DNA of 64,000 nt from Ignavibacteriales bacterium (lineage in GTDB: Bacteria; Bacteroidota; Ignavibacteria; Ignavibacteriales; Melioribacteraceae). Shown in pieces: positions 35,638 through 49,722 of the stretch. How positions within the stretch are numbered: position 1 is the first letter of the stretch; each line of letters begins with the position of its first letter. The stretch covers positions 62,001-126,000 of the forward strand of contig JAIOYW010000013.1 of NCBI GenBank assembly GCA_021740915.1. Reading direction: 5' to 3'. Position numbers and translations under genes: made by a program. A model generated the notes under the pieces. That model worked only from the letters and a program-made list of their open reading frames with translations. It did no database searches and was not told the DNA's origin.

Positions 35638-36480
35638 TTATATTTTCAGTTTATCGGCGGGGCTTTTTATCTTATTAATTGAATACGATGATATATGAGT
35701 ATAAATCTGAGTTGTTTCAATTCTTTTGTGACCAAGCAATTCCTGAATGTATCGGATATCAGTTCCTTCATCAAGAAGATGTGTTGCAAAACTATGTCTT
35801 AGAGAATGAACTGTTGCTTTTTTCCTGATCCCCGCTTTTTTCAGCGCCTGTTTAAATACCGTCTGAACACTCTGAGTGCTGTATGGTTTTCCGGGCTGAC
35901 CCTCCACAAGAAATTCTTCCGGTTTATATTCTTTGTAATAGTCCCGCAATAATACTAATGCGTTTTCCGATAGCATTATATACCGGTCCTTTTTGCCTTT
36001 ACCCTGCCTTATATGAATTCTCATCGCTTTGGAATCAATATCCATTATTCTGAGATTTATCAATTCTCCAAGTCTTAAACCGGCTGAATATATTAGGATA
36101 AGAATTGTTTTGTGTTTTATGTTTTCAGTTACTTTGATAATTTTAGAAACCTCTTCTGCTGAAAGGACAACAGGAAGCCTCTCCGGTTTTCTTAATTCTA
36201 TTTTTAACGCCTGAGGATATTCTTTATGAAGAACCTTAGTATATAAATATCCGATCGAAGCGATCACTTGTTTCATAGATGAGTATGAGTATTTTTTTTC
36301 GCTGCTGGCAAAGTATAAATAATCACCAATCTCCTTATCAGTTACCTTTTCCATTTTGTGCTTTTCAACATACTCAAGAAAAAGTTTTATCGAGGACAGG
36401 TAGTTTTTTATGGTTTGTTCCGAGTAGTTTTCAATTTTTAACAGCCGTTCGAAGCTTAGTAAAATTTCTTGCTTTCTCAT
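35638..36480 (-). CDS. Tyrosine site-specific recombinase (XerC/XerD or chromosomal-integrase type)
   Basis: A 280-residue integrase: SAM-like core-binding domain (about 1-85) and catalytic domain (about 100-280) with all expected residues. These are Arg in S-A-G-L-R-L-G-E near 138, Lys in G-K-G-K-K-D-R near 162, H-S-L-R-H-S-F-A-T-H near 227, H in L-L-G-H near 253, and the nucleophile Tyr in T-T-Q-I-Y-T-H near 263. It lacks the extra helix with the K-Y-P patch seen in integron integrases. It ends I-K-S-P-A-D-K-L, a tail I associate with chromosomal integrases of Bacteroidota and relatives. It points away from the accessory island that starts right behind its start codon. Confidence 0.9.
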   Translation of the reverse strand: MRKQEILLSFERLLKIENYSEQTIKNYLSSIKLFLEYVEKHKMEKVTDKEIGDYLYFASSEKKYSYSSMKQVIASIGYLYTKVLHKEYPQALKIELRKPERLPVVLSAEEVSKIIKVTENIKHKTILILIYSAGLRLGELINLRIMDIDSKAMRIHIRQGKGKKDRYIMLSENALVLLRDYYKEYKPEEFLVEGQPGKPYSTQSVQTVFKQALKKAGIRKKATVHSLRHSFATHLLDEGTDIRYIQELLGHKRIETTQIYTHISSYSINKIKSPADKLKI

Positions 36481-36530
36481 AAATATTAGTGTATTTTACC
36501 TAATATATACAAATAAACATAACTTATATT

Positions 36531-36558
36531 CCTGCTATATACAATTGGGTATAGCGGG
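36531..36558. repeat. Imperfect hairpin next to the recombinase gene (possible recombination site)
   Basis: CCTGCTATA(t)AC pairs with GTATAGCGGG across a short AATTGG loop. It sits 50 bases in front of the integrase start codon, between the integrase and the island. The GTATAGCGG core recalls the GCGGTATAG arm of the larger element at 47765. An attachment-site role is inference. Confidence 0.35.
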
Positions 36559-36603
36559 ATGTTGTAGCCAATTTTAGGACGAAACGGCACAATACTACTT
36601 GAC

Positions 36604-36638
36604 AAAAAAATCACAAGAGCCGAAACCCTTGTGATTTT
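36604..36638 (-). terminator. Rho-independent terminator of the SDR operon
   Basis: Perfect 11-bp stem AAAATCACAAG/CTTGTGATTTT with a 10-base loop. On the minus strand it ends in seven T, 26 bases after the SDR stop. Confidence 0.88.
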
Positions 36639-36663
36639 ATTAAATTGAAGGTAAACTTAATGA

Positions 36664-37638
36664 TTAAGCAGAAGCACCACCTAAAACCGAATCAAGTTGC
36701 ATTTCTTTCAAAATTCTGTCTTGAATAGGTTGTGTTAGGTTGTTGATTTCGTCAGTACCCCAAGTGATACCAACAACTGTTCTTGTAGGACGGCTTCCAA
36801 AAGGTAAATCAGCCAATTTCAAATACGCATCTACTACCCATTGTGGGTCGGGTGCATTTTCACTCTGTAACATTTGAGCAAAATTTTCGCCCATTGCAGA
36901 AGGAACACCTGCCAATTCACCATAAGATTCTAAAACTTCGCTGTGTGCAGGTACTTGTCCTGAAGCCAATAGTCCTGTTCCAAAAGGACCTGGTTCTACC
37001 ATGACGATATCTACACCAAAAGGCGATACCTCATATCTCAAAGCTTGTGAGTAACCTTCTAATGCGTGTTTGGTTGCAGTATAAGTCCCAAAAAACGGTG
37101 GTGACATACGACCCACCAAAGAAGATGTATTAATGATTAAGCCTGAACCTGCTTTACGCATAGATGGTAAAACCGCTTGCATCGTTCTAATGGCACCATA
37201 ATAGTTGGTCTCCATCTGTTGGTGTGCCTGAGCAACACTAAAAGCCTCTGTAATACCGAGATACATAATCCCCGCGTTGTTGATGAGAATATCAACATTC
37301 CCTACCTCTGCAAGAATACTCGCCATCGCTTCTTTAACAGAGGCATCTATGGTTACATCCATATCCACCACTTTGATGTGGGCAGAATGTGCTTCTAATT
37401 CAGCTTTTACTGCAGCATTTTTTCCGTCAGGATTACGCATTGTGGCAAAAACCTGATAGCCTTTATCTGCAAGATCTTTGGCAGCCTTTAATCCAAATCC
37501 GTTGCTGCTTCCTGTTATGATTACATTTTTCATTTTTATATCCTTTAATTGATTAATCTTGCTTGTTGATTTTGTTTGATTGGTGCCACAGGAAGCGAGA
37601 ATACCTGATAACACAAAAACGCTGATTATATTTTTCAC
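36664..37638 (-). CDS. SDR-family oxidoreductase with lipoprotein-like leader
   Basis: A classical short-chain dehydrogenase: T-G-S-S-N-G-F-G cofactor loop, N-N-A-G, and catalytic Y-T-A-T-K. ATG 37638 gives 324 residues with a 35-residue leader that reads as a lipoprotein signal (L-A-S-C, Cys 17). The internal ATG at 37533 (289 residues) has a good AAAGGA site eight bases upstream and begins where normal SDRs begin. The same leader, in mutated form, precedes the SnoaL gene at the head of this operon. Substrate unknown. It is the last gene of an HxlR-controlled operon (SnoaL, membrane protein, SDR). Confidence 0.88.
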   Translation of the reverse strand: MKNIISVFVLSGILASCGTNQTKSTSKINQLKDIKMKNVIITGSSNGFGLKAAKDLADKGYQVFATMRNPDGKNAAVKAELEAHSAHIKVVDMDVTIDASVKEAMASILAEVGNVDILINNAGIMYLGITEAFSVAQAHQQMETNYYGAIRTMQAVLPSMRKAGSGLIINTSSLVGRMSPPFFGTYTATKHALEGYSQALRYEVSPFGVDIVMVEPGPFGTGLLASGQVPAHSEVLESYGELAGVPSAMGENFAQMLQSENAPDPQWVVDAYLKLADLPFGSRPTRTVVGITWGTDEINNLTQPIQDRILKEMQLDSVLGGASA

Positions 37639-37670
37639 TTTGAAAATTATTTAAAAAGTGAAAAATTAGA

Positions 37671-38210
37671 TTACGTTGAAGCATACGTAAATGCTAAATA
37701 ATTAAGTACGGTTGATACGAGCCAGACTGGAGCAAACACGAAACCTACATTCCGGCCGTTCCGGGATACTTTCGGGTGGTGACCCAAAAAAGGAATTCCT
37801 GCATGATTGGCATTGACCAGCGTAAACAATGCAGACAATACCAGTAATAAGAAATGCAGAACCGCACGCTCTTCTAAAGGCAATTGCAAGCCGTAAATGA
37901 TACCAGCTATAACGGCATAGAAAGCCAGAGAGTTCTGGCGCTGTTCAAAAAGCAAAAGAAATATGTAATCCTTCGCCGCTGTCTTCTTCTCTGTTGGCAC
38001 AGATGAAATCGCTGCATCCAGCATTGCTGTCTGCTCATTAGCAGTCATTTGATTCTTACCCTTAGGCAAGCCAGGTTCAAAAAATGGCAGGACATAATTG
38101 ACGATCAATCGAGCCAACATTGGAAAAACGACTTCCAATGAGTGAAGAATGCCCGGTAGCATACATATTGCCAAGGCCAGTGTAGAAATTAAATTTTCAG
38201 TCACGAACAA
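37671..38210 (-). CDS. Uncharacterised membrane protein
   Basis: The 179-residue protein has four likely membrane segments (about 8-30, 95-115, 118-135, 155-175) and a hydrophilic loop between the first and second. No family recognised. It lies between the SDR (32 bases) and SnoaL (27 bases) genes in one operon and is presumably regulated with them by the divergent HxlR protein. Confidence 0.65.
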   Translation of the reverse strand: MFVTENLISTLALAICMLPGILHSLEVVFPMLARLIVNYVLPFFEPGLPKGKNQMTANEQTAMLDAAISSVPTEKKTAAKDYIFLLLFEQRQNSLAFYAVIAGIIYGLQLPLEERAVLHFLLLVLSALFTLVNANHAGIPFLGHHPKVSRNGRNVGFVFAPVWLVSTVLNYLAFTYAST

Positions 38211-38237
38211 TACTCCTATTTTAATAATTTGTTTTTA

Positions 38238-39122
38238 CTAAAACCCAAACATTCCATTATTGTTTGCCAAACCTTCGGTTGGGATTTCCTGAATAACATC
38301 CCAATGCTCTACAATCTTACCCGCTTTCATTCGGAATAAATCGTAAAACACTTGTGATTTGCCGCTCCATTCACCTTCGCTTACTGTAAGTAAGAAGTTA
38401 CCTTCACCCAATACTTTGTGGATTTTAGTGTACTTAAACATGTTGTTTTGTGAAGTGAGATACTGTACGGCTTCTACAATGCCGCTCAATCCATCTTTTA
38501 TTTGCGGGTTGTGCTGGTCGTATTGTTCGGCACTGATGTATTCGGTAATCTTATTTGGGTTTTTACCCATCAGCACATCTTCTATCAGTGCTACGGCCAA
38601 GGCTTTGTTCGCATCGGTTTTGTCTAAGTCTTCTACTTTAGTAGGTCCATCGGTTTGAGTTCTTCCGCTAGCGGTTTCTTTAACTAAAACTGTCATTGCA
38701 TCCCAGTGTTCAGCTACTTTCCCGTTTTCATCTATACGGATAATATCAAATGCCACCATTTCATCTGCTCCAAAAGGTTTGGCGTTTTTCCAAATGTTGT
38801 GCATAAACACATAGTTGCCGTCTTCAAACATTCGCACGTTTTCGGCATATGTTCCGTGTTCTTTTAAGACAGGTAGCAGTTGGATAAAGGGTTCAAGTCC
38901 GGTGGGTACAAACGGATTGTGCTGAATATAATCAACATTTGCAAATTTACGCATTGTTTCAGCGTCTTGTTTAGCAACAGCACCTAAAAAAGTGCCTACG
39001 ATTTCTTTCTTGTTCATATTAATTCCTTTTGATTGATTAAGCCCGCTTGTTGATTTTGTTTGACTTATGCCAGAGGAAGCGAGAATACCTGATAACATAA
39101 TAACACAAATTACTTTTTTCAT
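38238..39122 (-). CDS. Double SnoaL/NTF2-like protein with signal-like leader
   Basis: 294 residues from ATG 39122, which follows a GGAAAG site. Two SnoaL-like domains (about 38-165 and about 180-285) each contain the Y-(I/D)-Q-H-N-P and E-H-W-D signatures of polyketide-cyclase-like NTF2 folds. The first 35 residues match the leader of the SDR gene, but the lipobox Cys has become Ser (L-A-S-S-G), so it would be a normal or non-functional signal. A second start at 39017 has its own AAGGA. It is the first gene of the operon and lies beside three operator-like repeats. Confidence 0.82.
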   Translation of the reverse strand: MKKVICVIMLSGILASSGISQTKSTSGLNQSKGINMNKKEIVGTFLGAVAKQDAETMRKFANVDYIQHNPFVPTGLEPFIQLLPVLKEHGTYAENVRMFEDGNYVFMHNIWKNAKPFGADEMVAFDIIRIDENGKVAEHWDAMTVLVKETASGRTQTDGPTKVEDLDKTDANKALAVALIEDVLMGKNPNKITEYISAEQYDQHNPQIKDGLSGIVEAVQYLTSQNNMFKYTKIHKVLGEGNFLLTVSEGEWSGKSQVFYDLFRMKAGKIVEHWDVIQEIPTEGLANNNGMFGF

Positions 39123-39156
39123 TGACTTTCCTTTCTGATTAAAATTTATTACTTTT

Positions 39157-39233
39157 GTTTCGCAAGTAAAAATATATAAATAACTTTCAATTTGCAAGTG
39201 ATATTCAAATAAATTTCATTTTGCAAGTAAAAT
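39157..39233. promoter_or_regulatory. Three direct repeats in the divergent promoter, likely HxlR operators
   Basis: The unit TTT(C)GCAAGTRAWA occurs three times, with GCAAGT at 39162-39167, 39194-39199 and 39223-39228 (steps of 32 and 29 bases, about three helix turns). They fill the gap between the SnoaL operon and the HxlR gene. HxlR regulators usually bind such repeats next to their own gene. Confidence 0.7.
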
Positions 39234-39251
39234 TTAACAGATTGTTAACAT

Positions 39252-39701
39252 ATGCAACAGGATTTCAGATGTAATTGCCCGTTTACTTCAGCCCTTGACA
39301 TTTTAGGCGATAAGTGGATGTTGGTTATCGTAAAGCAAATGCTAATCGAAGGAAAAGAAAGTTTTAAAGACTTTACGGATAGTGAGGAAGCCATTGCTAC
39401 CAATATTCTTTCGACCAAGCTCAAACTCTTGGAAGAACTGGGAATCATCATCAAAACAAAACGACCGGATAATAAAAAGACCAGCCTCTATCTTTTAACC
39501 GATAAGGGATTGGCTTTGACACCTATACTTGTAGAGCTTGCAACATGGTGCGATAGTCATCTTAGGGAAATCCATCCAACCATTGTAAATGGTGAAGCAA
39601 TGGAATTTTTGCGGAATGACAAAGCAGCTTTTGCACTTGCCTTAGAGAAAAAATACAGGGAAAAACTGGCAACAACATTTTATAAGAGCAATGGCGGCTG
39701 A
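39252..39701 (+). CDS. HxlR-family transcriptional regulator
   Basis: A 149-residue winged-helix regulator. It has the family opening C-N-C-P-F-T-S-A-L-D-I-L-G-D-K-W (Cys 8 and Cys 10 at the position of the redox- or electrophile-sensing cysteine) and S-T-K-L-K-L-L-E-E-L-G-I-I in the recognition and wing part. It diverges from the SnoaL/membrane/SDR operon and probably controls it. HxlR proteins often answer electrophiles or quinones, so the SDR may reduce such compounds (inference). Confidence 0.92.
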   Translation: MQQDFRCNCPFTSALDILGDKWMLVIVKQMLIEGKESFKDFTDSEEAIATNILSTKLKLLEELGIIIKTKRPDNKKTSLYLLTDKGLALTPILVELATWCDSHLREIHPTIVNGEAMEFLRNDKAAFALALEKKYREKLATTFYKSNGG

Positions 39702-39750
39702 GGTAGTTAATCAAAAGGTCTGTGACTTTAATAAAACTTTGTTTGTGTGG

Positions 39751-39766
39751 AAAGGTAATTACCTTT
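39751..39766. repeat. Perfect 16-base palindrome AAAGGTAATTACCTTT
   Basis: The sequence is self-complementary without a loop, 50 bases after the HxlR gene and 165 bases before the defence operon. It could be a terminator stem or a dimeric-protein operator. The rest of the gap 39702-39930 shows nothing else clear. Confidence 0.4.
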
Positions 39767-39930
39767 AAATCCGCTACTGCTCTTATACTTGACAGTTACC
39801 TGCTATGTTAAAAAAAGCGACCGTGTAAATTGACAACGACATATTTTGACGGATTGATAGTTTAAATTAGCAATAAAACGGAGAAGCCGAAAACCGATTT
39901 AGAGTAGGCAGAATTATAACAAAAAAAATT

Positions 39931-40125
39931 ATGGCACTTTACAAACTAACAGCACCAAGACAATTCGGAGATATGACGAAAGGTTACACTTTTCAAGTTC
40001 CTTCTGCTACATCACCGACTCCCACTGCTCAAGATGTAGAAAAAGAAATCATTAGATTGGGATTTAACAAACAAGCTCAATCTTACAAAAGTCCAGGTAA
40101 TTTTAAAGTAGAGAAAATTAGCTGA
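39931..40125 (+). CDS. Small 64-residue protein heading the defence operon
   Basis: A short basic protein (M-A-L-Y-K-L-T-A-P-R, then G-Y-T-F-Q-V-P, ending K-V-E-K-I-S) with no membrane segment or known motif. It starts after an A-rich stretch and ends 10 bases before the fusion nuclease gene, so it is probably translated with it. It could be an accessory or regulatory subunit. I know no function. Confidence 0.6.
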   Translation: MALYKLTAPRQFGDMTKGYTFQVPSATSPTPTAQDVEKEIIRLGFNKQAQSYKSPGNFKVEKIS

Positions 40126-40135
40126 TTGATAAAAA

Positions 40136-42127
40136 ATGAATTATAAACTTGACTATATTTCAAGATTGTTGCAAAGAACAAGCAGCAAGCGCATTGAGCA
40201 TTACGTGATTTCTCGTATTTGGCATTTACTTGACAATTACGATATAAAAATGACTCCACAACAATATGTTTCAAGAGAACATTCTCAATATGCGCTTACT
40301 GATGTTTATTTTCCTCAAATCGGGGTGCACGTTGAAGTTAATGAGCCTGCTCATTATGAAAGCGAAGAAAGAATACAAAGAGATTTGAAACGAAAACAAG
40401 AAATTGAAAGCAACACAGGACATCAACTATTTGAGATAGATTGTCGTCAAGATATTATTGGCATTCATTCGCAAATCAAAGAGCTAATTGAAAAAATCAA
40501 ATTTGAGGTTAAAAAACAAATAGAAAACCAGACATTCAAACCATGGCAACCCGAAAATGAACACAACCCAAGTTATTGGAAAAGGAAAGGCGATATAAGC
40601 ATCTCGGACGAAGTTACCATGAATACGATTGATGATATTTGTTTGCTATTTGATGCTGATTATACGAAAACTAAAAGAGGATTTTTAAGAAAGGGTGGAA
40701 TTTCAAATCTCAAAAATGCTCATCAAATTATTTGGTGGCCTTCTGAAAATTCAAGAAGTGGATGGTTAAACCATTTTAATGAAATCAACGGTACAATCAC
40801 GGAAACACATTCAGACCCGAAAAAGAAATCTGAACATTATCATAATCATGCACAAGAAATTCATGTTAGAGTAGTCTTTTATCACTACAAAGACATTTTA
40901 GGACTGACAAAATATAAATACGTTGGTGTTTTCACAAAAGACAATTTTCTAATTCTCGATTGTTGGGATAATTTTGAATATTTCAAACTCAATCCAAGAG
41001 GTAAAGAATTAAAAGGTCAAATTCCTTTGCCTGTTCGCTTGTTTAGTGTTCGATTGGAAAAGATTGAAGAAGCACAAACACAAAGCAAATCTGAAATTGT
41101 AAATAAAGAAGTTCAGAAAATCAGAAAGCAAGTTGAAGCGCTTCCGAAAAATTCGGTGATTATTATGGAAGCCCGAAATGAACTGCAACGATTGGAAGAT
41201 GAAAATTTCTGGAACAACTTGACATCTGACAAAATGGAATTTTTGGAAGCGGTTGTAAAACCATTGCTTCGCACGGTTTCAGATGTTGATTTCAAAGCTA
41301 TGCGATTTGAAAAAGACATTGTGGAAGTTTCATTAGCTCATTTAGCGGGAGAAACAGAAAAATTTGAAACGCTGAAAGAAAGCATCATTGAAGAAATTGG
41401 CGAACTGCCTTTGAGTATCAACATTGTGGCAAGAGAGCAGGAATTAATTCGTCAGGCACAAAGCAATCATTATTGGGCAACCATCAATGAAGACAAGTTT
41501 GAGGAACTGATTCAGAAACTTTCACCGTTAATGAAATTCAGAGAGGCAGTTATTCCGTTAGCTCCTGCAAAATTTAACTTAAAAGACATTGTTGCCGAAA
41601 AAGAATTTATTGAGTTTGGACCACAACACGAAGCTTTGAGCGTAGCCAAATACCGTGAACTGGTTGAAAAGAAAATCAATGAATTGGTTTCAAGCAGTCC
41701 GATTTTACAAAAACTTAAACAGGGGCAGGAAATTACAACTGATGAAGCTGAACAATTAGCCGAAGAACTGCACAACGAGCATCCGCACATTACCATTGAT
41801 TTGCTTCGCAAGGTTTACAACCACCGCAAAGCAGCATTGGTGCAATTCATTAAACACATTTTAGGCATTGAACAGTTGGAAACCTTTGCAGAAACTGTTA
41901 CCAAAGCTTTTGATGATTTTATTTCAAAACATAGTTATCTTACTAGCCGACAACTTCAATTTCTTGACTTGCTCAAAAACTTTGTATTGGAAAAAGGCGA
42001 TGTGAGCAAACGCAACCTGATTGAATCGCCTTTTACTATGCTTCATCCAGAAGGCATCAGAGGTGTATTTAATCAAAGAGAGATTGACGAAATTATAAGT
42101 TTAACCGAAAAAGTATTAGCAGCATGA
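40136..42127 (+). CDS. Fusion: AbaSI/PvuRts1I-like nuclease joined to the HsdR C-terminal domain
   Basis: 663 residues. The front third is a Vsr/DUF559-like PD-(D/E)xK nuclease: S-S-K-R-I-E-H-Y near 16-23, then A-L-T-D-V-Y-F-P (Asp 56) and V-E-V-N-E-P-A-H (Glu 67, Glu 70, His 73). This is the layout I associate with AbaSI-type enzymes that cut DNA carrying modified cytosine. The next part (about 150-310; R-G-F-L-R-K-G-G, I-I-W-W-P) fits their SRA-like reader. From about residue 318 to the end the protein instead matches the post-helicase C-terminal region of EcoEI-type HsdR: L-P-K-N-S-V-I-I-M-E-A-R-N-E-L, S-S-P-I-L-Q-K-L-K-Q-G-Q-E-I-T, S-P-F-T-M-L-H-P-E-G-I-R-G-V-F. There is no GxGK(T/S) motif, so the ATP-driven translocase is absent. 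hsdM and hsdS follow in the same operon. Confidence 0.82.
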   Translation: MNYKLDYISRLLQRTSSKRIEHYVISRIWHLLDNYDIKMTPQQYVSREHSQYALTDVYFPQIGVHVEVNEPAHYESEERIQRDLKRKQEIESNTGHQLFEIDCRQDIIGIHSQIKELIEKIKFEVKKQIENQTFKPWQPENEHNPSYWKRKGDISISDEVTMNTIDDICLLFDADYTKTKRGFLRKGGISNLKNAHQIIWWPSENSRSGWLNHFNEINGTITETHSDPKKKSEHYHNHAQEIHVRVVFYHYKDILGLTKYKYVGVFTKDNFLILDCWDNFEYFKLNPRGKELKGQIPLPVRLFSVRLEKIEEAQTQSKSEIVNKEVQKIRKQVEALPKNSVIIMEARNELQRLEDENFWNNLTSDKMEFLEAVVKPLLRTVSDVDFKAMRFEKDIVEVSLAHLAGETEKFETLKESIIEEIGELPLSINIVAREQELIRQAQSNHYWATINEDKFEELIQKLSPLMKFREAVIPLAPAKFNLKDIVAEKEFIEFGPQHEALSVAKYRELVEKKINELVSSSPILQKLKQGQEITTDEAEQLAEELHNEHPHITIDLLRKVYNHRKAALVQFIKHILGIEQLETFAETVTKAFDDFISKHSYLTSRQLQFLDLLKNFVLEKGDVSKRNLIESPFTMLHPEGIRGVFNQREIDEIISLTEKVLAA

Positions 42128-42610
42128 TGTCTGAATCACTGATTAGACAGATTAAAAGATTGCGCTGAAATGAAATATTCAGATTATGGAAGAGTTGAAA
42201 TATAAAGACATAACAGAGAAGATAATTGGAGCATCTTTTGAAGTCCATAAATTTCTTGGCAATGGATTTCAGGAAGTAATTTATCAAAGAGCCCTGACTT
42301 ATGAATTCAGAAAGGCAGGACTTGATTTTGCCCGGGAAATAGAACAGAATATTTATTACAAGGATTTGGAAGAACCAATTGGAACAAGGAGGGCTGATTT
42401 TGTTGTAGAAAGAAAAGTGTTGGTTGAGTTAAAAGCATTAGCCAAACTTGAGGATGTCCACATTGCACAAGCTTTAAATTATCTGAAAGCGTATCAACTT
42501 GAAATTGGTTTGCTAATCAATTTCGGATCAAAAAGTTTGGAGTTTAAACGGCTTATTCTTTCTCAAAAATCGGTGAAATCAATAAATCAGTAAAATCAGC
42601 GATTCAGACA
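42128..42610 (+). mobile_element. Inverted-repeat element 1, carries a GxxExxY gene
   Basis: Ends are TGTCTGAATCACTGATT (42128-42144) and AATCAGCGATTCAGACA (42594-42610), complementary at 16 of 17 positions. The left end starts right after the stop of the fusion gene, and the right end touches the ATG of the next gene. Related elements are at 43416 and 44221. Confidence 0.7.
42186..42593 (+). CDS. GxxExxY family protein (copy 1)
   Basis: A 135-residue protein with the name-giving G-F-Q-E-V-I-Y near residue 28 and a PD-(D/E)xK-like core (R-R-A-D-F-V-V, then V-L-V-E-L-K-A near 80), suggesting a nuclease-related fold. Biochemical activity of the family is not established to my knowledge. It lies wholly inside an inverted-repeat element between the fusion nuclease and the Bro-N gene. 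Copy 2 at 43452 is clearly diverged, so they are not a recent duplication. Confidence 0.85.
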   Translation: MEELKYKDITEKIIGASFEVHKFLGNGFQEVIYQRALTYEFRKAGLDFAREIEQNIYYKDLEEPIGTRRADFVVERKVLVELKALAKLEDVHIAQALNYLKAYQLEIGLLINFGSKSLEFKRLILSQKSVKSINQ

Positions 42611-43471
42611 ATGGAAAAGAATAATGAAATAAAAATATTTGAGGACAAAAAAGTTAGAACGCTTTGGGATGCCGAAAATGAAAAATGGTATTTATCGATT
42701 GTTGATGTTATTGCAGTTTTAACTGACAGTCCTAATCCGCAGGTGTATTGGCGAGTATTAAAAAAGAGATTAAAAGACGAGGGTAATGAAACCGTTACAA
42801 ATTGTAACGCTTTGAAAATGCCAGCCTCTGACGGTAAAATGAGATTGACAGATGTAGCTGATACCGAACAGCTTTTTCGTCTAATTCAATCCATACCATC
42901 GCCCAAAGCAGAACCCTTTAAACAATGGCTCGCACAGGTAGCCGCAGAACGATTGGATGAAATGCAAGACCCTGAACTTAGCATTGACAGGGCTCTTGAA
43001 CAATACATGAAACTTGGTTATTCAGAAAACTGGATTAACCAACGCCTCAAAAGCATTGAGATACGAAAAGAATTAACAGGCGAATGGAAAAAACGGGGAT
43101 TGAAAGAAGGTGTTCAGTTTGCTACGCTTACCGATATTATTACCAAAGCATGGAGCGATAGAACTACCAAAGAATACAAAATACTGAAAGGTTTGAAAAA
43201 GGAAAACCTGCGGGATAACATGACCAATACTGAACTAATTCTAAACATGCTTGCCGAAGCATCCACTAAGGATATCTCAGACGCAACCAATCCGAAAGAT
43301 TTTGAAGAAAGCAAGAAAGTAGCAAAACAGGGCGGTAATGTAGCAAAAGTGGCACGCAAAGAACTGGAAGCTAAAACAGGTAAAAATGTAGTTACCTCTC
43401 TAAATGCCAAAAAAAGTCTGAACACGATTATAGGATTAAACGATAAAAACGATGGAGAAAAACATAAATAA
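42611..43471 (+). CDS. Bro-N / DinD-like protein
   Basis: The 286-residue protein has an N-terminal Bro-N-like domain (about 10-100; V-R-T-L-W-D-A-E-N-E-K-W-Y-L-S-I-V-D-V, then Y-W-R-V-L-K-K-R-L) as in phage antirepressors and DinD. It is followed by a helical region with A-A-E-R-L-D-E-M and N-M-T-N-T-E-L-I-L-N-M-L. Similar genes are common beside type I restriction genes. ATG 42611 touches the right end of element 1, so any ribosome site lies within that element. The last 19 or so residues (from K-K-S-L-N) are coded by the left arm of element 2, so the natural C terminus was probably replaced. Confidence 0.75.
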   Translation: MEKNNEIKIFEDKKVRTLWDAENEKWYLSIVDVIAVLTDSPNPQVYWRVLKKRLKDEGNETVTNCNALKMPASDGKMRLTDVADTEQLFRLIQSIPSPKAEPFKQWLAQVAAERLDEMQDPELSIDRALEQYMKLGYSENWINQRLKSIEIRKELTGEWKKRGLKEGVQFATLTDIITKAWSDRTTKEYKILKGLKKENLRDNMTNTELILNMLAEASTKDISDATNPKDFEESKKVAKQGGNVAKVARKELEAKTGKNVVTSLNAKKSLNTIIGLNDKNDGEKHK

Positions 43472-43883
43472 CATCACACATAAAATAATTGGCTGTGCAA
43501 TGCAGGTTCACAATACACTTGGAAATGGCTTTCAAGAAGTGATTTATCAAAGAGCATTAGCTATTGAAATGCGATTGGCTGAGCTTTCTTATCAAAGAGA
43601 AATGGAAATGCCAATTTTTTACAGAGAGGAACAAATCGGTACAAGAAGAGTAGATTTTTTTGTAGAGGATTGTGTGATGGTAGAACTAAAAGCAATGGAA
43701 AAAATTGAAGATGTGCATAAAGCTCAAGCAATTAATTATCTTGAAGCGTACAATATTGCTGATGGATTGCTTATCAATTTTGGTGGACCATCACTGGAAT
43801 TTAAGAGGCTCTACAATAAAAAATTAGTAATCCCCACAGGCAATCCTGTTAATCAAACAAATCCCTAAAATCCTGTTCAGACA
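43416..43883 (+). mobile_element. Inverted-repeat element 2, carries a GxxExxY gene
   Basis: Left arm GTCTGAACACGATTATAGG (43416-43434) pairs with the right arm reading, on the other strand, GTCTGAACAGGATTTTAGGG (43863-43882). The left arm lies in the 3' end of the Bro-N gene; the right end touches the ATG of hsdM. Confidence 0.7.
43452..43868 (+). CDS. GxxExxY family protein (copy 2)
   Basis: 138 residues with G-F-Q-E-V-I-Y near residue 29 and the same core as copy 1 (R-R-V-D-F-F-V, V-M-V-E-L-K-A). Its start overlaps the Bro-N gene by 20 bases and its end is 15 bases before hsdM. Copy 1 and copy 2 share the family motifs but differ at many codon positions, which indicates separate arrival or old divergence. 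Confidence 0.85.
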   Translation: MEKNINNITHKIIGCAMQVHNTLGNGFQEVIYQRALAIEMRLAELSYQREMEMPIFYREEQIGTRRVDFFVEDCVMVELKAMEKIEDVHKAQAINYLEAYNIADGLLINFGGPSLEFKRLYNKKLVIPTGNPVNQTNP

Positions 43884-45632
43884 ATGCTCCAAAACAACGC
43901 ACAATTAAAATCGCTGATTGACAAGCTCTGGCAGAACTTTTGGGAAGGTGGTATTGCCAACCCTTTAACCGCCATTGAGCAAATTACCTATCTTATTTTC
44001 ATGAAGCGTTTGGACGATTTAGAAGCCAAACGTGAGCGTGATGCCGAATGGACAGGCGAAAAATATGTTTCTCGATTTGCGGGCAAATTCAATGTTCCGG
44101 GCAGTAATGAAAGCATTGACAAAAACGAATTGCGTTGGAGTGTTTTTAAACACAAGCCCGCTGACGAAATGCTGTTGCATGTGCAAATGAAAGTGTTTCC
44201 GTTTTTGAAGGAAATAAATAGTCTGAACCATGATTCAAATGATTCAGGGATTTCCGTGATTAAGAAAAATATAGGAAATGGAAAAGACGAAAATGAAAAT
44301 CATGGTAATCATGAAAATCAAATAAATCAAGGTTCAGACAGTTTTACCCGTCACATGGCAAATGCCGTATTCATTATGCCAAAAGCAAGTTTGCTGGTTT
44401 CTGCCATCAATATTGTAGAAGATATTTTCAAGGAAATTGAAAAAGATGCCACCGAAGGCGGACATGCTTTTCAGGACATACAAGGTGATGTGTATGAAAT
44501 GCTGTTGAGTGAAATCGCTACTGCTGGTAAAAACGGACAGTTCCGTACCCCACGCCACATTATTAAACTCATGGCTGAGCTGGTTGCACCGCAATTGGGA
44601 CAACGCATTGCCGACCCTGCTTGTGGAACAGGCGGTTTCTTATTGGGTGCATATCAATACATTCTTACCGATTTGGTTCGTAAAAACACTTCGACTTCCT
44701 TCGGCTCCGCTCAGGACAAGTCGCTCAGTGCAGGAGACAGAAAGCCAATTGAAAAAGACGAAGACGGTTTTGAACGTGCTGCCATTAGTGCAGTTTTGAC
44801 ACAAAATGTAAAAACCATTCTCGACCAAAGTTTTGTAGGTTACGATATTGATACCACAATGGTGCGTTTAGGTTTGATGAACCTGATGATGCATGGCATT
44901 GATGAACCCAAAATTGACTACAAAGACACGCTGAGCAAAAGCTACAACGAAGACAGCCAGTTCGATGTAATTATGGCAAATCCGCCATTTACGGGGAATA
45001 TTGACAAAGGCGATATTAACGAAGGGTTGAAACTGCCCACCACCAAAACCGAACTGCTGTTTGTAGAACGTATTTTTAACATGCTCAAAATGGGCGGAAC
45101 GGCTGCCGTTATTGTACCCAGTGGTGTAATACAAAACAGCGGAAAAGCATTTGAAAGCCTACGAAAACTGATTATTGAAAAAGCCGAACTAAAAGCCGTA
45201 ATAGCCGTTCCAAGCGGAGCATTTAAACCCTACGCAGGAGTAAGTACTGCCATTTTGATTTTTACAAAAGGCGGTGAAACCAACAATGTGTGGTTTTACG
45301 ATATGCAATCAGATGGCTATAGTTTAGACGATAAGCGAAATAAAATTGCAGACCTGCCCGACGGCACGGCGGGAAGCGATTTGCCCGACATTGTGCAACG
45401 CTTCAAGGAGCGCGGTTCCCTGAGCGGAGCCGAAGGGGACCGAAAGCAGAAATACTTTATGGTGCCGAAAAACGAAATTGTAGAAAACAACTACGACCTG
45501 AACCTGAGCACCTACAAAGAAGAAGTGTATGAAGAAGTGGTGTATGAAAAACCGAATGTGATTTTCGTAAAATTGGAAAGCATTGAAGCCGATATTCAAA
45601 AAGGGTTGGCTGAATTAAAACAAATAATCTAA
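43884..45632 (+). CDS. hsdM: Type I DNA methyltransferase subunit HsdM
   Basis: The 582-residue adenine-N6 methyltransferase has an N-terminal helical domain (L-W-Q-N-F-W-E-G-G near 12-20), S-adenosylmethionine motif D-P-A-C-G-T-G-G-F near 235 and catalytic N-P-P-F near 367. The F-R-T-P-R-H-I-I-K-L-M segment is typical. Three insertions stay in frame: a 120-base inverted-repeat element (about residues 113-152), and two copies of an 18-base repeat (44698-44715 and 45419-45436). They lie between conserved motifs, so the enzyme may still work. Its end overlaps the RAYT start (TAATG). It should methylate in complex with HsdS and, in a normal system, protect against HsdR. Confidence 0.93.
   Translation: MLQNNAQLKSLIDKLWQNFWEGGIANPLTAIEQITYLIFMKRLDDLEAKRERDAEWTGEKYVSRFAGKFNVPGSNESIDKNELRWSVFKHKPADEMLLHVQMKVFPFLKEINSLNHDSNDSGISVIKKNIGNGKDENENHGNHENQINQGSDSFTRHMANAVFIMPKASLLVSAINIVEDIFKEIEKDATEGGHAFQDIQGDVYEMLLSEIATAGKNGQFRTPRHIIKLMAELVAPQLGQRIADPACGTGGFLLGAYQYILTDLVRKNTSTSFGSAQDKSLSAGDRKPIEKDEDGFERAAISAVLTQNVKTILDQSFVGYDIDTTMVRLGLMNLMMHGIDEPKIDYKDTLSKSYNEDSQFDVIMANPPFTGNIDKGDINEGLKLPTTKTELLFVERIFNMLKMGGTAAVIVPSGVIQNSGKAFESLRKLIIEKAELKAVIAVPSGAFKPYAGVSTAILIFTKGGETNNVWFYDMQSDGYSLDDKRNKIADLPDGTAGSDLPDIVQRFKERGSLSGAEGDRKQKYFMVPKNEIVENNYDLNLSTYKEEVYEEVVYEKPNVIFVKLESIEADIQKGLAELKQII
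44221..44340 (+). mobile_element. Inverted-repeat element 3, 120-base version inside hsdM
   Basis: Left arm GTCTGAACCATGATTCAAAT and right arm (other strand) GTCTGAACCTTGATTTATTT mark it as the same family as elements 1 and 2, without an internal gene. It is translated as an Asn/His/Asp-rich segment of about 40 residues. Confidence 0.65.
44698..44715 (+). repeat. 18-base repeat in hsdM, copy A
   Basis: CCTTCGGCTCCGCTCAGG. The exact reverse complement occurs at 45419-45436. The surrounding codons read S-T-S-F-G-S-A-Q-D-K-S-L-S-A-G-D, an obvious insertion between conserved HsdM blocks. Confidence 0.7.
45419..45436 (-). repeat. 18-base repeat in hsdM, copy B (inverted)
   Basis: Reverse complement of copy A, coding R-G-S-L-S-G-A-E-G-D-R-K. 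A weaker relative may lie in the 3' end of hsdS near 47450-47474. Confidence 0.7.
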
Positions 45633-46093
45633 TGGCAGGAACATTTTCTCAAATATATATTCAGGTTGTTTTTGCAGTGCAAAACAGGGAGTGCATGATT
45701 CATTCATCATGGGAAGAAGAATTGTACAAATACATTTCTGGCATCGTAAAGAATAAAGAACAAAAAATGTTAGCCATAAATGGAATGCCTGACCATATTC
45801 ATTTTTTTATAGGAATGAGACCATCTTGTTGCTTATCAGATTTAGTTAGAGAAATTAAAAAATCATCGAATGATTTTATTAAAGAAAAGAAATTCACGAA
45901 ATTCAAATTTAATTGGCAAGAAGGCTATGGAGCGTTTTCATACAGTCATTCACAAATTGATTCCGTGGTGAAATATATCATGAATCAAAAGGAACATCAT
46001 AAGAAACACACATTCAGAGAAGAGTATCTGGATTTTTTGAAGAAGTTTGAGATAGAATTTAAAGACGAATATTTATTTAAATGGATAGAATAA
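45632..46093 (+). CDS. REP-associated tyrosine transposase (RAYT, Y1/IS200-like)
   Basis: The 153-residue HUH-type transposase has metal-binding His-x-His in N-G-M-P-D-H-I-H-F-F near residue 52 and the Tyr nucleophile in the helix around G-A-F-S-Y-S-H-S-Q-I. C-terminal K-Y-I-M-N-Q-K-E-H-H is typical of the family. It acts on single-stranded hairpins. The start ATG overlaps the hsdM stop by one base, so it is read with the restriction operon. A cluster of short palindromes lies directly downstream, as expected for a RAYT with its REP sequences. Confidence 0.9.
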   Translation: MAGTFSQIYIQVVFAVQNRECMIHSSWEEELYKYISGIVKNKEQKMLAINGMPDHIHFFIGMRPSCCLSDLVREIKKSSNDFIKEKKFTKFKFNWQEGYGAFSYSHSQIDSVVKYIMNQKEHHKKHTFREEYLDFLKKFEIEFKDEYLFKWIE

Positions 46094-46098
46094 TAGAG

Positions 46099-46265
46099 AA
46101 TCCGAAGGATTCAAATGTTTATAGAAATGGTTGTTGCGGTTTATATACGACCCTGAAAGGGTCATATGTTTATAGAAAATATCAATGTTTAGGATATTCG
46201 ACCCCATCGGGGTCGCACCGTTCATTGTATATGTTTTTCTATAAACATCAAATCCCTTCGGGATT
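46099..46265 (+). repeat. Cluster of four REP-like palindromes after the RAYT gene
   Basis: AATCCGAAGGATT (46099-46111), GACCCTGAAAGGGTC (46149-46163), GACCCCATCGGGGTC (46200-46214) and AATCCCTTCGGGATT (46251-46265). The outer two and the inner two are related pairs. The tag ATGTTTATAGAAA follows the first two and appears inverted (TTTCTATAAACAT) before the fourth, giving an overall mirrored layout. Confidence 0.8.
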
Positions 46266-46272
46266 ATTTTTG

Positions 46273-46329
46273 GAAAATATTGAAGCTGATATTCAAAAAG
46301 GATTGGCGGAATTAAAAGAGTTGATCTGA
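46273..46329 (+). other. Second copy of the hsdM 3' end
   Basis: This stretch codes E-N-I-E-A-D-I-Q-K-G-L-A-E-L-K-E-L-I-stop, nearly the same as the last 17 codons of hsdM (45580-45632). The DNA differs at about ten of 59 positions, mostly silent. It ends TGATG, overlapping the hsdS start as hsdM would in an uninterrupted operon. Confidence 0.8.
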
Positions 46330-47514
46330 TGAAGTTTGAGAAACTTGGAGATATAGCAACAATTAAAACAGGCAAGTATGATGTAAACCATTCTACTCCT
46401 GATGGAGAATACGTATTCTATACTTGTGCATTTGGACAATTCAAATCACCGACTTACTCTTTTGAAGGTCCTGCAATTATATTACCTGGGAATGGGGCAA
46501 ATGTTGGTGAAGTTTTCTATTACGATGGAAAATTTGAAGCATATCAAAGGACTTATGTGGTTCAAAATTTCAAAGCTGACCCTAATTACATCTATGCTTA
46601 TTTTAAAGCACAGTGGAAAAACAGTTTAAGGAATAAGCAGTTTGGTTCTGCTACAAACTACATCAGACTAAATAATCTTACGGATTTCAAGGTTCCCCTT
46701 CCCCCACTACCCGACCAACTCCACATCGCCAACCTCTTAAGCAAAGCCGAAAACCTGATAAGCCTACGAAAAGAAAGCATCTGCCTACTGGATGAATTTT
46801 TAAAAAGCACTTTTTTAGAGATGTTTGGAGACCCCGAAAAAAATCCAAAGAATTTGCCGTTTACAGAACTTGAAAAGTTGTGTGCTGTAATTGTTGATTG
46901 TCCGCATTCAACACCAGTGAAATCAAAAGATGCAACTAACTTTCCATGCATCAGAACTTCTGAATTAACAAACGGATATATTTCATGGGATTCAATGCAA
47001 TATTTGGAAGAAGATGAATACAAAAAACGTACTCAACGATTAATCCCTTTAGCTGGCGACATTGTTTACGGTAGAGAAGGTAGTTATGGTGAAGCAATCA
47101 GAATCCCTTCAACTCATAATTTTTCATTAGGTCAAAGAACAATGTTATTTAGACCTGATTATAAAAAAACAAATAGTATTTTTCTTTGGGCAATGGTTCG
47201 CTCTGAATTTGTTTACAGACAAGCTAAAAAGAAAAACAGTTGGTCATGTTAATGTTAAAGACATTAAGCAATTCAGAGTTTATAATCCTCCAATAGAACT
47301 CCAAAACCAATTTGCTCAAATAATAGAAAAAACAGAAGCACTTAAAACCCAATACCAACAGAGCTTACAGGAATTGGAAAATTTGTATGGCAGTTTAAGC
47401 CAAAACGCGTTTAGGGGTGAGTTGGGTTTGAAAGATGATAGTTTGTTAAGCTCTGCTGAGGATGGTCGAAGCATGGCTGCGGAGCCTAATATTGAATACA
47501 AGACAAATTGTTAA
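46329..47514 (+). pseudogene. hsdS: Type I specificity subunit HsdS with a one-base frameshift
   Basis: Two target recognition domains, each followed by a conserved coiled-coil region, can be read (D-Q-L-H-I-A-N-L-L-S-K-A-E near residue 133, and E-L-Q-N-Q-F-A-Q-I-I-E-K-T-E in the second part). The frame breaks at GCTAAAAAGAAAAACAG (47223-47239): frame one stops at 47252, while the matching continuation T-V-G-H-V-N-V-K-D-I-K-Q-F is in the next frame. Removing one A restores an HsdS of about 394 residues, the normal size. This may be true inactivation, slippage-based phase variation at the A5 run, or a sequence error. Confidence 0.88.
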
Positions 47515-47546
47515 TGCAAAAGAGCTTCCGCCTCTCCAGCCCACTT

Positions 47547-47572
47547 AACCGCCTTTCAGGACGGTTTTAGGA
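47547..47572 (+). terminator. Likely terminator of the defence operon
   Basis: Stem AACCG-CCT/AGG-A-CGGTT followed by TTA, 32 bases after hsdS. The T tract is short. A second hairpin near 47652-47673 (AACCTGCC/GGCGGGTT) may add to it. The remaining sequence to 47764 shows no gene. Confidence 0.5.
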
Positions 47573-47764
47573 TTACTCACAAATTGCTTATTTTTTATAG
47601 GTGTTCGTGAATCGCTTCGCTTATTTGCCCACGCTCAAAAAACAAAATAAACCTGCCCGTTCCACAGGCGGGTTTGTGCTTCGTGTATAGGTTGGTGCAG
47701 TTAAACAATGACTTGAAAATAGAGCTAAATAATTGACAAACAAACAGAAATAAATGAACACCAG

Positions 47765-47898
47765 TTGCCAACACGCGGTATAGTTAATAAGGGTTTCAGT
47801 GGTTTTCGGGGCGTAGTAACCCGCTCTAAAATAAGCTGTACCTTGACAGGAAAAAGCCCGCAATCCCTTACTAACCATACCGCCACCGTTATGTGCAA
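47765..47898. repeat. Large imperfect inverted repeat (attC-like), left of the DHFR-like gene
   Basis: The left arm TTGCCAACACGCGGTATAG continues to TTAATAAGGG at 47793. The right arm CCCTTACTAACCATACCGC continues CACCGTTATGTGCAA to 47898. In the 19-base core GCGGTATAG..AAGGG, 17 positions pair, and the outer right arm has extra unpaired bases, as in integron attC sites. It ends 28 bases before the gene start. Confidence 0.55.
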
Positions 47899-47926
47899 GC
47901 TGAAAAAACAACGATAGAATAAAATT

Positions 47927-48487
47927 ATGGCAAAATTGACATCATTCACATTCATTTCTTTAAATGGATTTTATAAAGGAATAAACGAGGATATAAATTG
48001 GCACCAACACGGAGGAGAAGAGGCGGAATACTCAGTTGAGAGCTTAAAATCGGACGACATTCTTCTATTCGGCAGAGTGACTTATGATATGATGAAAAGT
48101 TTTTGGCCAACTCAACTGGCTTATGATTCCTTTCCCGAAGTTGCATATGGAATGAACAACTCGGAAAAACTTGTTGTTTCTAAATCACTAAAATCAGCTG
48201 ATTGGAAAAACACCCAAATTATTAAGGAAAATCTCATCGATAGAATAACAGAATTAAAAAAGACGAGTAAAAAGAACATTACACTTTTAGGGAGCGGAAA
48301 GATTTTAAAACAACTTTCGAATGCGAATTTAGTGGACGAATATCAAATAATGGTTGACCCAATATTCATCGAAAATGGAGAACCGATTTTGGACAATCTG
48401 AATGATAATATTAATCTCGAACTGACAAAAAGCAAAGTTCTTAAAAGTGGTACAATCTTGCTTTATTATAAACCTAAAGTGAATTAA
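47927..48487 (+). CDS. Dihydrofolate reductase / RibD C-terminal family protein
   Basis: This 186-residue protein opens S-F-T-F-I-S-L-N-G-F-Y-K-G and has L-L-F-G-R-V-T-Y-D-M-M near residue 46 and I-T-L-L-G-S-G-K-I-L near 121, the pattern of the RibD_C/YyaP-type reductases rather than classical FolA. NADPH binding is expected; the physiological substrate is unknown. It is a stand-alone gene with short flanks, bracketed by two large hairpin elements, so it has the form of a gene cassette. Confidence 0.87.
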   Translation: MAKLTSFTFISLNGFYKGINEDINWHQHGGEEAEYSVESLKSDDILLFGRVTYDMMKSFWPTQLAYDSFPEVAYGMNNSEKLVVSKSLKSADWKNTQIIKENLIDRITELKKTSKKNITLLGSGKILKQLSNANLVDEYQIMVDPIFIENGEPILDNLNDNINLELTKSKVLKSGTILLYYKPKVN

Positions 48488-48498
48488 GGAATAAAGCC

Positions 48499-48643
48499 AG
48501 CACATAACAATGTATATACAAAATAGGCGAAATAGTAGTAAATTCAAAGTTTGTAACCCGCTTCAAAGTCGTAATGGTATTATAAGTTTGAAGCCCGGGA
48601 TCGTCCGCTTTGCATATATTTGCAAATACTAAACATTGTGCGC
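48499..48643. repeat. Large imperfect inverted repeat (attC-like), right of the DHFR-like gene
   Basis: The outer left arm has GCACATAACAATGTATATAC and the right arm has AAACATTGTGCGC; the inner arms CCCGCTTCAAA (48557-48567) and TTTGAAGCCCGGG (48587-48599) pair well. The left outer end GCACATAAC is the complement of the GTTATGTGC at the right end of the element at 47765, so the two elements share their ends. It stops 38 bases before the next gene. Confidence 0.5.
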
Positions 48644-48681
48644 AATTTAAAGCGGCGGCCTCGTCCAGAAAATAGGATATT

Positions 48682-49722
48682 ATGAAGAAGAAACAAATAA
48701 AACGAATACTCAGAATAGTCTTTATTTTGGCAAGTGTAGGCTCTTTATACTTCGTACCATGGATTTTGGTGCGGGCATGGATAATGCCGCTGCCTGATAC
48801 GGTTCAGGAACAACTCGATGAAGGCATCAAATATGGATTTGATGGAATGATTGTTTATGTGGACGAAGCAGGTAAACCCCCTGCGTTTTATGCTGCAGGC
48901 TGGCACAACCGGAAAAGTAAAACACCCGCCTACCCGCAAGCATTATTTAAAATTGCCAGCATTACAAAGCTATATGTCGCTGTTGCTGCCGCAAAGCTGG
49001 TAAAAGCCGGGCACTTGTCTTTGGATGAAACAATTGCTGAATACTTTCCGGAACTTGCGGGAAGAATTGAATATTCAGACAAAATAACCTTGAGAATGAT
49101 GTTGCAGCATCGGAGTGGCATTCCCAATTTTGTTGAACATCCTGATTTTTGGAAAAAACCTCCAAAAAGCAGACAAGAAACACTTGATTACGCACTGGAT
49201 TTACCGGCTGACTTTGAGCCTGGTGAAGATTATGGTTATTCAAACACCAATTATATGTTGATTGAGGATCTCGTTGATAAAACGTTGGGCTATCCACACC
49301 AGCAATATATCAGGGAGGAAATTTTGAACCCTCTTGGGCTGAAAAACACTTTCACCTCGCTTAGTGAAGTGGATATTGACGATGTGATGAGCGGCTATTA
49401 TGTCGGCGTCGATGCTGATTTTAAGTATGAAGACACTGGCTTAATGCTGGCAACAGCGGAGGATGTGGGTATATTTTTACGTGCATTAAACGATGGTTCG
49501 GTGTTTAAGGAAGGTGAACAGGAAATCTATTCCTCCATTTACGTTTACGAACATACGGGTCTTATTGTTGGCTATCAGAGTATCGCAAAATATTACAAAG
49601 ACATGGACATGATTGTTATCCAATTCAATAATACAACTAATTTTGATGGATATAACTGGAATTTGGCGGAAATCATATATAGTCGTATCGTAAAAATAAT
49701 GAGAAGCAAAAAAAGCTCATAA
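48682..49722 (+). CDS. Serine hydrolase of the beta-lactamase (class C / PBP) family
   Basis: The 346-residue protein has an N-terminal membrane anchor or uncleaved signal (about 8-28). The catalytic serine is in F-K-I-A-S-I-T-K (Ser-x-x-Lys near residue 92) and Y-G-Y-S-N-T-N-Y near 180 holds the Tyr-x-Asn motif. The family includes penicillin-binding proteins, esterases and class C beta-lactamases, so antibiotic hydrolysis cannot be assumed. The length is a little short after the Y-x-N motif. It lies just behind the second hairpin element, possibly as the next cassette. Confidence 0.87.
   Translation: MKKKQIKRILRIVFILASVGSLYFVPWILVRAWIMPLPDTVQEQLDEGIKYGFDGMIVYVDEAGKPPAFYAAGWHNRKSKTPAYPQALFKIASITKLYVAVAAAKLVKAGHLSLDETIAEYFPELAGRIEYSDKITLRMMLQHRSGIPNFVEHPDFWKKPPKSRQETLDYALDLPADFEPGEDYGYSNTNYMLIEDLVDKTLGYPHQQYIREEILNPLGLKNTFTSLSEVDIDDVMSGYYVGVDADFKYEDTGLMLATAEDVGIFLRALNDGSVFKEGEQEIYSSIYVYEHTGLIVGYQSIAKYYKDMDMIVIQFNNTTNFDGYNWNLAEIIYSRIVKIMRSKKSS

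What the first reader, a model, noticed from the sequence alone, without database searches (positions are those of the whole stretch)
40136..42127. A modification-dependent-type nuclease fused to the HsdR C-terminal domain takes the place of HsdR in a type I operon
The 663-residue product starts like an AbaSI/PvuRts1I enzyme (Vsr-like nuclease residues Asp 56, Glu 67, Glu 70, His 73, then a probable SRA-like reader) and from about residue 318 reads as the post-helicase C-terminal region of an EcoEI-type HsdR. In normal HsdR this region is thought to dock the subunit on HsdM/HsdS. No Walker A motif is present, so the ATP-driven translocase is gone. The operon then has hsdM and hsdS. This suggests a compact, ATP-free hybrid: a nuclease that may recognise modified phage DNA but is tethered to, or licensed by, a type I methyltransferase complex. 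I do not know of a described system with this design; that is a statement about my knowledge only. It may also be an accidental deletion product.
Basis: partly seen in the sequence, partly recalled or inferred. Interest (0 to 1): 0.88.

Follow-up and report, generated by a model that had tools for sequence, protein, structure and literature searches.

The report
AbaSI-type nuclease fused to HsdR tail
In this bacterium a gene for a nuclease of the kind that cuts chemically modified phage DNA has been joined, in frame, to the tail of an ordinary type I restriction subunit in place of its motor; it looks like a one-off fusion beside a type I system whose DNA-recognition gene is also broken, so a working hybrid machine is possible but not the likeliest reading.

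Summary
The fusion is in the sequence. Residues 1-267 are an AbaSI/PvuRts1I-type enzyme (Vsr-like nuclease plus SRA reader) lacking only its last ~25-30 residues. Five catalytic and five pocket residues are kept, but Asp70 and Tyr210 of PvuRts1I are both Asn here. Residues 268-663 are the post-helicase part of a common HsdR, up to 97% identical to intact ~930-aa HsdRs elsewhere. HsdR's own nuclease and helicase are missing; the genome's next best match to them is only 35% identical. I found no second genome with this architecture: the 80 closest kept relatives of the HsdR part all carry helicase sequence, and 19 AbaSI-type homologues checked all stand alone. The hsdS gene downstream is frameshifted, whereas it is continuous in 60 of 60 comparable loci; hsdM is open but carries in-frame inserts. 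Best reading: a single, probably recent fusion that acts, if at all, as an ATP-independent type IV nuclease on modified (5hmC/5ghmC-like) DNA, its HsdR tail a passenger or optional dock beside a decaying type I system. A docked hybrid is not excluded (about 0.2).

The parts
40136..42127 (+). Fusion gene: AbaSI/PvuRts1I-type nuclease and SRA reader joined to the post-helicase part of HsdR, 663 aa
   Evidence: ORF; domains
40148..40501 (+). PvuRts1I-like_N nuclease domain, residues 5-122, with E21, D56, E67, E70, H73 (PvuRts1I Asp70 is N69 here)
   Evidence: Pfam PF21598 E 3.5e-31; alignment to solved enzymes; fold matches
40580..40936 (+). SRA reader domain from residue 149 to the joint at residue 267; W200, P202, W210, N212, E223 kept; last ~25-30 residues of stand-alone enzymes missing
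   Evidence: Pfam PF18491 reaches profile position 130 of 145; tails of stand-alone homologues
40937..40937 (+). Joint: first base of HsdR-derived sequence (codon 268)
   Evidence: Identity to 24 hsdR genes falls from 0.74-0.96 per 6-nt block downstream to 0.01-0.53 upstream; 0-1 shared base directly upstream in four hsdRs
40937..42124 (+). HsdR-derived part, residues 268-663: end of the second helicase lobe and the C-terminal helical region
   Evidence: 63-97% identical to HsdRs at 80 loci; dN/dS about 0.03-0.06 against 14 of them
41648..42118 (+). EcoEI_R_C domain, residues 505-661
   Evidence: Pfam PF08463 E 3.8e-28
42186..42593 (+). GxxExxY (PDDEXK_3) gene inserted between the fusion gene and hsdM
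   Evidence: PF13366 E 1.4e-36; 41-nt imperfect inverted repeats 42128-42168 and 42570-42610
42611..43471 (+). BRO-N gene, PADLOC candidate PDC-S13
   Evidence: PF02498 E 1.1e-12; PDC-S13 E 4.2e-139
43452..43868 (+). Second GxxExxY (PDDEXK_3) gene
   Evidence: PF13366 E 2.1e-40
43884..45632 (+). hsdM, 582 aa, methylase motifs DPACG (at 243) and NPPF (366) present, in-frame inserts of 36, 16 and 7 residues
   Evidence: PF02384 E 5.3e-59, HsdM_N; motifs; inserts against nine relatives
45632..46093 (+). IS200-like (Y1) transposase gene between hsdM and hsdS
   Evidence: PF01797 E 1.4e-25; NCBIfam transpos_IS200
46329..47252 (+). hsdS, first 307 codons, then frameshift and stop
   Evidence: Methylase_S E 3.9e-23; frame change
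47209..47514 (+). hsdS, distal conserved region in another frame
   Evidence: PADLOC Specificity_I 317-390/518, E 1.5e-24; continuous with the upstream part in 60 of 60 other loci

Best explanation
A real, in-frame gene fusion, probably recent and so far seen once. An AbaSI/PvuRts1I-type gene lost its last ~25-30 codons and was joined at codon 268 to the final 396 codons of an hsdR gene of a kind common in Bacteroidota-type genomes; HsdR's own nuclease and helicase were lost in the same or a linked event (shown: composition, joint, absence of a close helicase half elsewhere in the assembly). Mechanism, inferred: the product needs no ATP. Its SRA domain flips out and reads a modified cytosine of the 5hmC/5ghmC kind, and two Vsr-like nuclease domains cut about 10-12 nt away, as in PvuRts1I. 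The HsdR tail does not drive this reaction; it is a passenger or stabilising tail that may still bind HsdM. Type I restriction by this locus is gone, and type I methylation is probably impaired because hsdS is frameshifted. So it works like a type IV enzyme sitting in a decaying type I operon.
For: Nuclease and SRA family matches and folds. Residues that PMC4027163 and PMC4157451 (passages) report as needed are kept: Glu20/Asp57/Glu68/Glu71/His74 are E21/D56/E67/E70/H73, and Trp205/Pro207/Trp215/Asn217/Glu228 are W200/P202/W210/N212/E223 (mapped on the alignment). Sharp in-frame joint. HsdR part up to 97% identical to intact HsdRs, all 80 with helicase sequence. The genome's best match to the missing helicase half is 35% identical. 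hsdS frame broken here, continuous in 60 of 60 loci. No second fusion found.
Against: PvuRts1I Asp70, called absolutely conserved in PMC4157451, is Asn69 here and Asp in the eight homologues of alignment A3; the published Asp70Ala kept some activity. Tyr210, said to be conserved and to shape selectivity, is Asn205; Leu58 is Val57; Arg208 is Ser203. The SRA domain lacks its final ~25-30 residues, and the HsdR residues that follow are modelled with low confidence (270-303 under pLDDT 50), so the reader domain may not fold well. The HsdR part shows no sign of relaxed constraint (10 silent and 3 amino-acid private codons, like intact HsdRs) and hsdM is open, which fits a tail still in use as well as a very recent event. 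No activity, expression or dimer could be tested.
Confidence: 0.42

Rival explanations
1. Docked hybrid: the HsdR tail binds HsdM so that two modification-dependent nucleases ride on the M2S core, which would also supply the nuclease pair that PvuRts1I-type enzymes need. Cleavage would then depend on a modified base near a type I site, or on the methylation state of that site.
For: The retained HsdR part is in the region implicated in binding HsdS-HsdM (PMC2878639, passages) and evolves as slowly as in intact HsdRs. hsdM is open with its motifs, and its aligned part is 88-93% identical to nine relatives, which are 89-96% identical to each other.
Against: hsdS is frameshifted, unlike 60 of 60 relatives. 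No second case was found. The conservation of the tail can be inherited from before the fusion.
Confidence: 0.2
2. Non-functional deletion product: a random rearrangement joined two restriction genes and the protein is inactive, as is the rest of the operon.
For: Single case; truncated SRA end; Asp70 to Asn and Tyr210 to Asn; frameshifted hsdS.
Against: 663 codons without a stop, in-frame joint near a domain boundary, and ten of the mapped key residues kept; low dN/dS in the HsdR part, although a very recent event would also show this.
Confidence: 0.28
3. Assembly artefact: two separate loci were joined wrongly in the contig.
For: I had no reads; one assembly of 35 contigs only.
Against: No N in the window; 0-1 identical bases directly upstream of the joint in four hsdRs, and the longest shared word between the AbaSI part and the missing hsdR stretch is 11-12 nt, so there is little for an assembler to overlap. 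The cut-off 5' half of this hsdR should then exist elsewhere in the assembly and does not.
Confidence: 0.08

Closest known systems
AbaSI / PvuRts1I family (type IV, 5hmC/5ghmC-dependent nucleases)
   Same: Residues 1-267: same nuclease and SRA domains, order and key residues; E 2e-40 to AbaSI, fold match
   Different: Lacks the last ~25-30 residues, carries a 396-residue HsdR tail, Asn at PvuRts1I Asp70 and Tyr210, and lies in a type I operon; the 19 homologues whose frames I measured are 246-324 aa and unfused
HsdR of type I systems (EcoEI_R_C group; nearest intact copies L014-L020)
   Same: Residues 268-663 are 94-97% identical to the C-terminal parts of L014-L020 and the gene sits upstream of hsdM and hsdS
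   Different: No Walker A, no DExH, no HsdR nuclease; hsdS downstream is frameshifted
Type IIB/BcgI-like enzymes and engineered nuclease-HsdM fusions (PMC3874165, PMC6158711; passages)
   Same: Idea of a motor-free nuclease carried by an M2S-type core
   Different: There the nuclease is part of the M subunit and recognises a sequence; here a modification-dependent nuclease carries an HsdR tail and docking is untested. In PMC6158711 the ten engineered nuclease-HsdM fusions showed no restriction in vivo

Membership tests
PvuRts1I/AbaSI family | PD-(D/E)XK (Vsr-like) N-terminal nuclease domain | tested here: met
   PF21598 E 3.5e-31; 4par/4oq2 by sequence and fold
PvuRts1I/AbaSI family | Catalytic residues Glu20, Asp57, Glu68, Glu71, His74 | tested here: met
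   E21, D56, E67, E70, H73 by the alignment; last four invariant in A1, A2, A3, A8
PvuRts1I/AbaSI family | Asp70 and Leu58, listed as absolutely conserved in PMC4157451 | tested here: not met
   Asn69 and Val57. Asp70Ala kept some activity in that paper; Leu58 is Met in several of my stand-alone homologues, so I count these as variation, not exclusion
PvuRts1I/AbaSI family | SRA domain with base pocket (Trp205, Pro207, Trp215, Asn217, Glu228) | tested here: met
   W200, P202, W210, N212, E223; Tyr210 is Asn205
PvuRts1I/AbaSI family | Complete SRA C-terminal end | tested here: not met
   Joint after residue 267; stand-alone enzymes run on 25-30 residues
PvuRts1I/AbaSI family | Cleavage of 5hmC/5ghmC DNA, dimeric action | not testable with these tools
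   No biochemistry
Type I HsdR | HsdR nuclease and SF2 helicase with Walker A and DExH | tested here: not met
   Absent from the ORF; present in frame in 77 of 80 relatives, the other three being cut by contig ends
Type I HsdR | C-terminal EcoEI_R_C region | tested here: met
   PF08463 E 3.8e-28
Type I HsdR | Binding to the HsdM/HsdS core | not testable with these tools
   No complex prediction was on hand; no solved structure matched the 396-residue part by sequence
Working type I methyltransferase partner | Intact hsdM and hsdS | tested here: not met
   hsdM open, but hsdS frameshifted; 60 of 60 relatives with a matched distal region are continuous

The most novel reading that the evidence does not exclude
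A natural, motor-free hybrid restriction enzyme: modification-dependent nucleases held on a type I HsdM/HsdS core through the HsdR docking tail, so that cleavage of modified phage DNA is steered or licensed by type I site recognition. The truncated HsdS (307 codons) would then still assemble, perhaps as a dimer of truncated subunits as described for some type IC systems (PMC3874165, passages).
Probability: 0.18. Interest if true: 0.8.

Novelty: new variant of a known kind. Interest (0 to 1): 0.42.

Why it matters
If the product is active, nature has shown that the post-helicase part of HsdR can be grafted as a module onto an unrelated, ATP-free nuclease, something that engineers have tried with other halves without gaining restriction (PMC6158711, passages). 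It would make a direct test of what the HsdR tail does alone, and would offer a way to steer a 5hmC-dependent nuclease. If it is inactive it is a snapshot of how defence genes recombine at domain boundaries.

Tried and rejected
Widespread-architecture idea: rejected on present evidence. Genome scan with the whole protein: 307 relatives of 326 pattern matches, of which I saw only the best 80; all 80 match residues ~268-663 (one from 202) and all carry helicase sequence (one search used a wrong column and is replaced). The scan needs exact 8-residue words, so fusions with other HsdR clades could be missed. Plasmids: 89 records, none with one place over 80% of the query, 40 rows seen. Phages: 14 records, none joined. 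Viral contigs: 14, 15 and 2 loci, none fused where I measured the frame. PF21598 in genomes, each count including this genome: over the cut-off in 3 of 97 relatives; E <= 1e-6 in 2 of 395, 2 of 164 and 2 of 391 of its phylum, order and class (samples overlap); only this genome has it fused.

Other nucleases on an HsdR tail: PF08463 in 136 of 395 genomes (table capped). Of the short frames I opened ten plus this genome's second HsdR; those were frameshifted, truncated or contig-end HsdRs, not fusions. About ten further short frames, several at contig ends, and the unlisted matches were not opened.

The 64-codon ORF upstream (39931-40125) as a partner gene: no relative in plasmids or in 96 other genomes, so dropped. 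One search translated it in the wrong frame; one search is right.

Alignments A4, A5 and A7 misplaced the nuclease rows and were not folded. The full-length model is poor, so it says nothing about how tail and SRA meet. No Rfam match in 36000-50000. PHROGs gave nothing for the fusion.

Literature: looked for PvuRts1I/AbaSI with HsdR or type I parts; from the listings no title or abstract start describes this fusion, and passages of PMC12707154 and PMC11037411 do not either. These searches cover open-licence papers only.

Full report
What is there. The ORF 40136-42127 (+, 663 aa) has three Pfam domains: PvuRts1I-like_N (5-122), SRA (149-275) and EcoEI_R_C (505-661). PADLOC splits it at the same place: type II methyl-directed nuclease at 2-268, type I restriction subunit at 268-649. 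By sequence the first part matches the solved enzymes AbaSI (E 2e-40) and PvuRts1I (E 1.7e-20). A model of residues 1-312 (pLDDT 72.9) finds the same enzymes by fold, and the nuclease part of a poorer full-length model also matches Vsr.

Key residues. PMC4027163 and PMC4157451 (passages) report by mutation or structure Glu20, Asp57, Glu68, Glu71 and His74 in the active site and Trp205, Pro207, Trp215, Asn217 and Glu228 in the pocket. By the alignment these are E21, D56, E67, E70, H73 and W200, P202, W210, N212, E223. Against a normal enzyme: Asp70 is Asn69 (Asp in the eight homologues of A3; the published Asp70Ala kept some activity), Tyr210 is Asn205, Leu58 is Val57 and Arg208 is Ser203. The SRA match stops at profile position 130 of 145. 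In the solved enzymes 25-29 residues follow the aligned end, and the homologues measured have such a tail except L003, whose SRA half does not align. The HsdR residues that follow here cannot be shown to complete the domain (pLDDT under 50 at 270-303).

The HsdR part. A scan of 84,980 species genomes with the whole protein returned 307 relatives, of which the best 80 were kept; they match from residue 268 (three from 267, one from 202 or so) to the end at 63-97% identity. In 77 of the 80 the frame has a Walker A motif and DExH; three are cut by contig ends but keep helicase sequence just upstream of the match. The joint is sharp: over 24 hsdR genes, identity per 6 nt is 0.74-0.96 after 40937 and 0.01-0.53 before it. 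Four hsdRs share 0-1 base directly upstream of it, and the longest word shared by the AbaSI part and the replaced hsdR stretch is 11-12 nt. The close helicase half is nowhere else in this assembly; its best match is 35% identical. This argues against a misassembly but does not replace reads. The HsdR part has dN/dS of about 0.03-0.06 against 14 intact relatives, the same as 15 pairs among intact ones, and 10 silent to 3 amino-acid private codons. This fits either a recent event or continued use.

The operon. Between the fusion gene and hsdM lie two GxxExxY (PDDEXK_3) genes and a BRO-N gene (PADLOC PDC-S13, E 4.2e-139). Intact hsdR-hsdM operons carry the same BRO gene at 83-96% identity in seven of the 15 loci compared (L016, L018, L020, L023, L028, L033, L065; an eighth, L022, has a partial match upstream of hsdR), so this cargo is usual for the clade. 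HsdM is open, keeps DPACG and NPPF, and has inserts of 36, 16 and 7 residues that are rare in nine relatives; its aligned part is 88-93% identical to them, and they are 89-96% identical to each other. hsdS is broken: the first 307 codons and the distal conserved region are in different frames; against L033 the alignment has an 11-nt gap there. In 60 of the 80 loci in which the distal region was found, it is continuous with at least 250 residues upstream, without exception.

Distribution. No second fusion was found: 0 of 89 plasmid records with one place over 80% of the query, 0 of 14 phage records, 0 of 19 homologues by frame length, 246-324 aa (two of 21 loci given had no match), and 0 others among PF21598 matches in samples of 97, 395, 164 and 391 genomes (overlapping samples). 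Short PF08463 frames that I opened were damaged or cut HsdRs. The limits of these searches are given under Tried and rejected.

How it most likely works. Shown: composition, joint, loss of motor, broken hsdS, rarity. Inferred: the product, if active, reads a modified cytosine with its SRA pocket and cuts nearby with two nuclease domains without ATP, as PvuRts1I does (family knowledge; PMC12707154 passages, describe cleavage between suitably spaced 5(g)hmC). The HsdR tail may still bind HsdM, since in EcoR124I this region is believed to bind the HsdS-HsdM complex (PMC2878639, passages), but with hsdS frameshifted a normal type I complex is doubtful. I therefore put a stand-alone type IV enzyme with a passenger tail first (0.42), a dead product second (0.28), a docked hybrid third (0.2) and a misassembly last (0.08).

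Verdict. It is a new variant of a known kind: a member of the PvuRts1I family by its first part, with a tail never seen on it in my searches.

Noticed in passing
42128-42610, 43876-43883, 44216-44344: The first GxxExxY gene is bounded by 41-nt imperfect inverted repeats ending in TGTCTGAA/TTCAGACA, the same end lies just after the second one, and a 129-nt stretch inside hsdM bounded by similar 29-nt inverted repeats gives an in-frame insert. The word GTCTGAAYYRTGATT occurs 27 times in this genome and its reversed control 0 times: a dispersed repeat family that may travel with GxxExxY genes.
   Followed up: partly
45573-45634 and 46270-46331: The last 62 bases of hsdM are repeated (84%) after the IS200-like transposase gene, directly before hsdS, with inverted repeats in 46102-46262.
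   Followed up: no
44698-44733 and 45401-45436: A 36-nt inverted repeat lies within hsdM; its first arm is in the window-specific insert at residue 269.
   Followed up: no
L016, L018, L020, L023, L028, L033, L065, L156: Intact hsdR operons of this clade carry variable cargo, including the BRO-N gene, near hsdR and hsdM; in L156 a 496-aa ORF of another kind lies between hsdR and hsdM.
   Followed up: partly
L155 (G000:C10:202500-208500): A second, distant type I locus in the same genome (HsdR 819 aa with helicase motifs) also has a GxxExxY gene beside it.
   Followed up: no
35638-36480: A tyrosine recombinase gene (phage integrase family) lies about 3.7 kb upstream on the other strand.
   Followed up: no
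H41, H42, H53, H54: Records named Acinetobacter phage MD-2021a hold HsdR-like and AbaSI-like sequence on separate contigs; they may be bacterial DNA.
   Followed up: no
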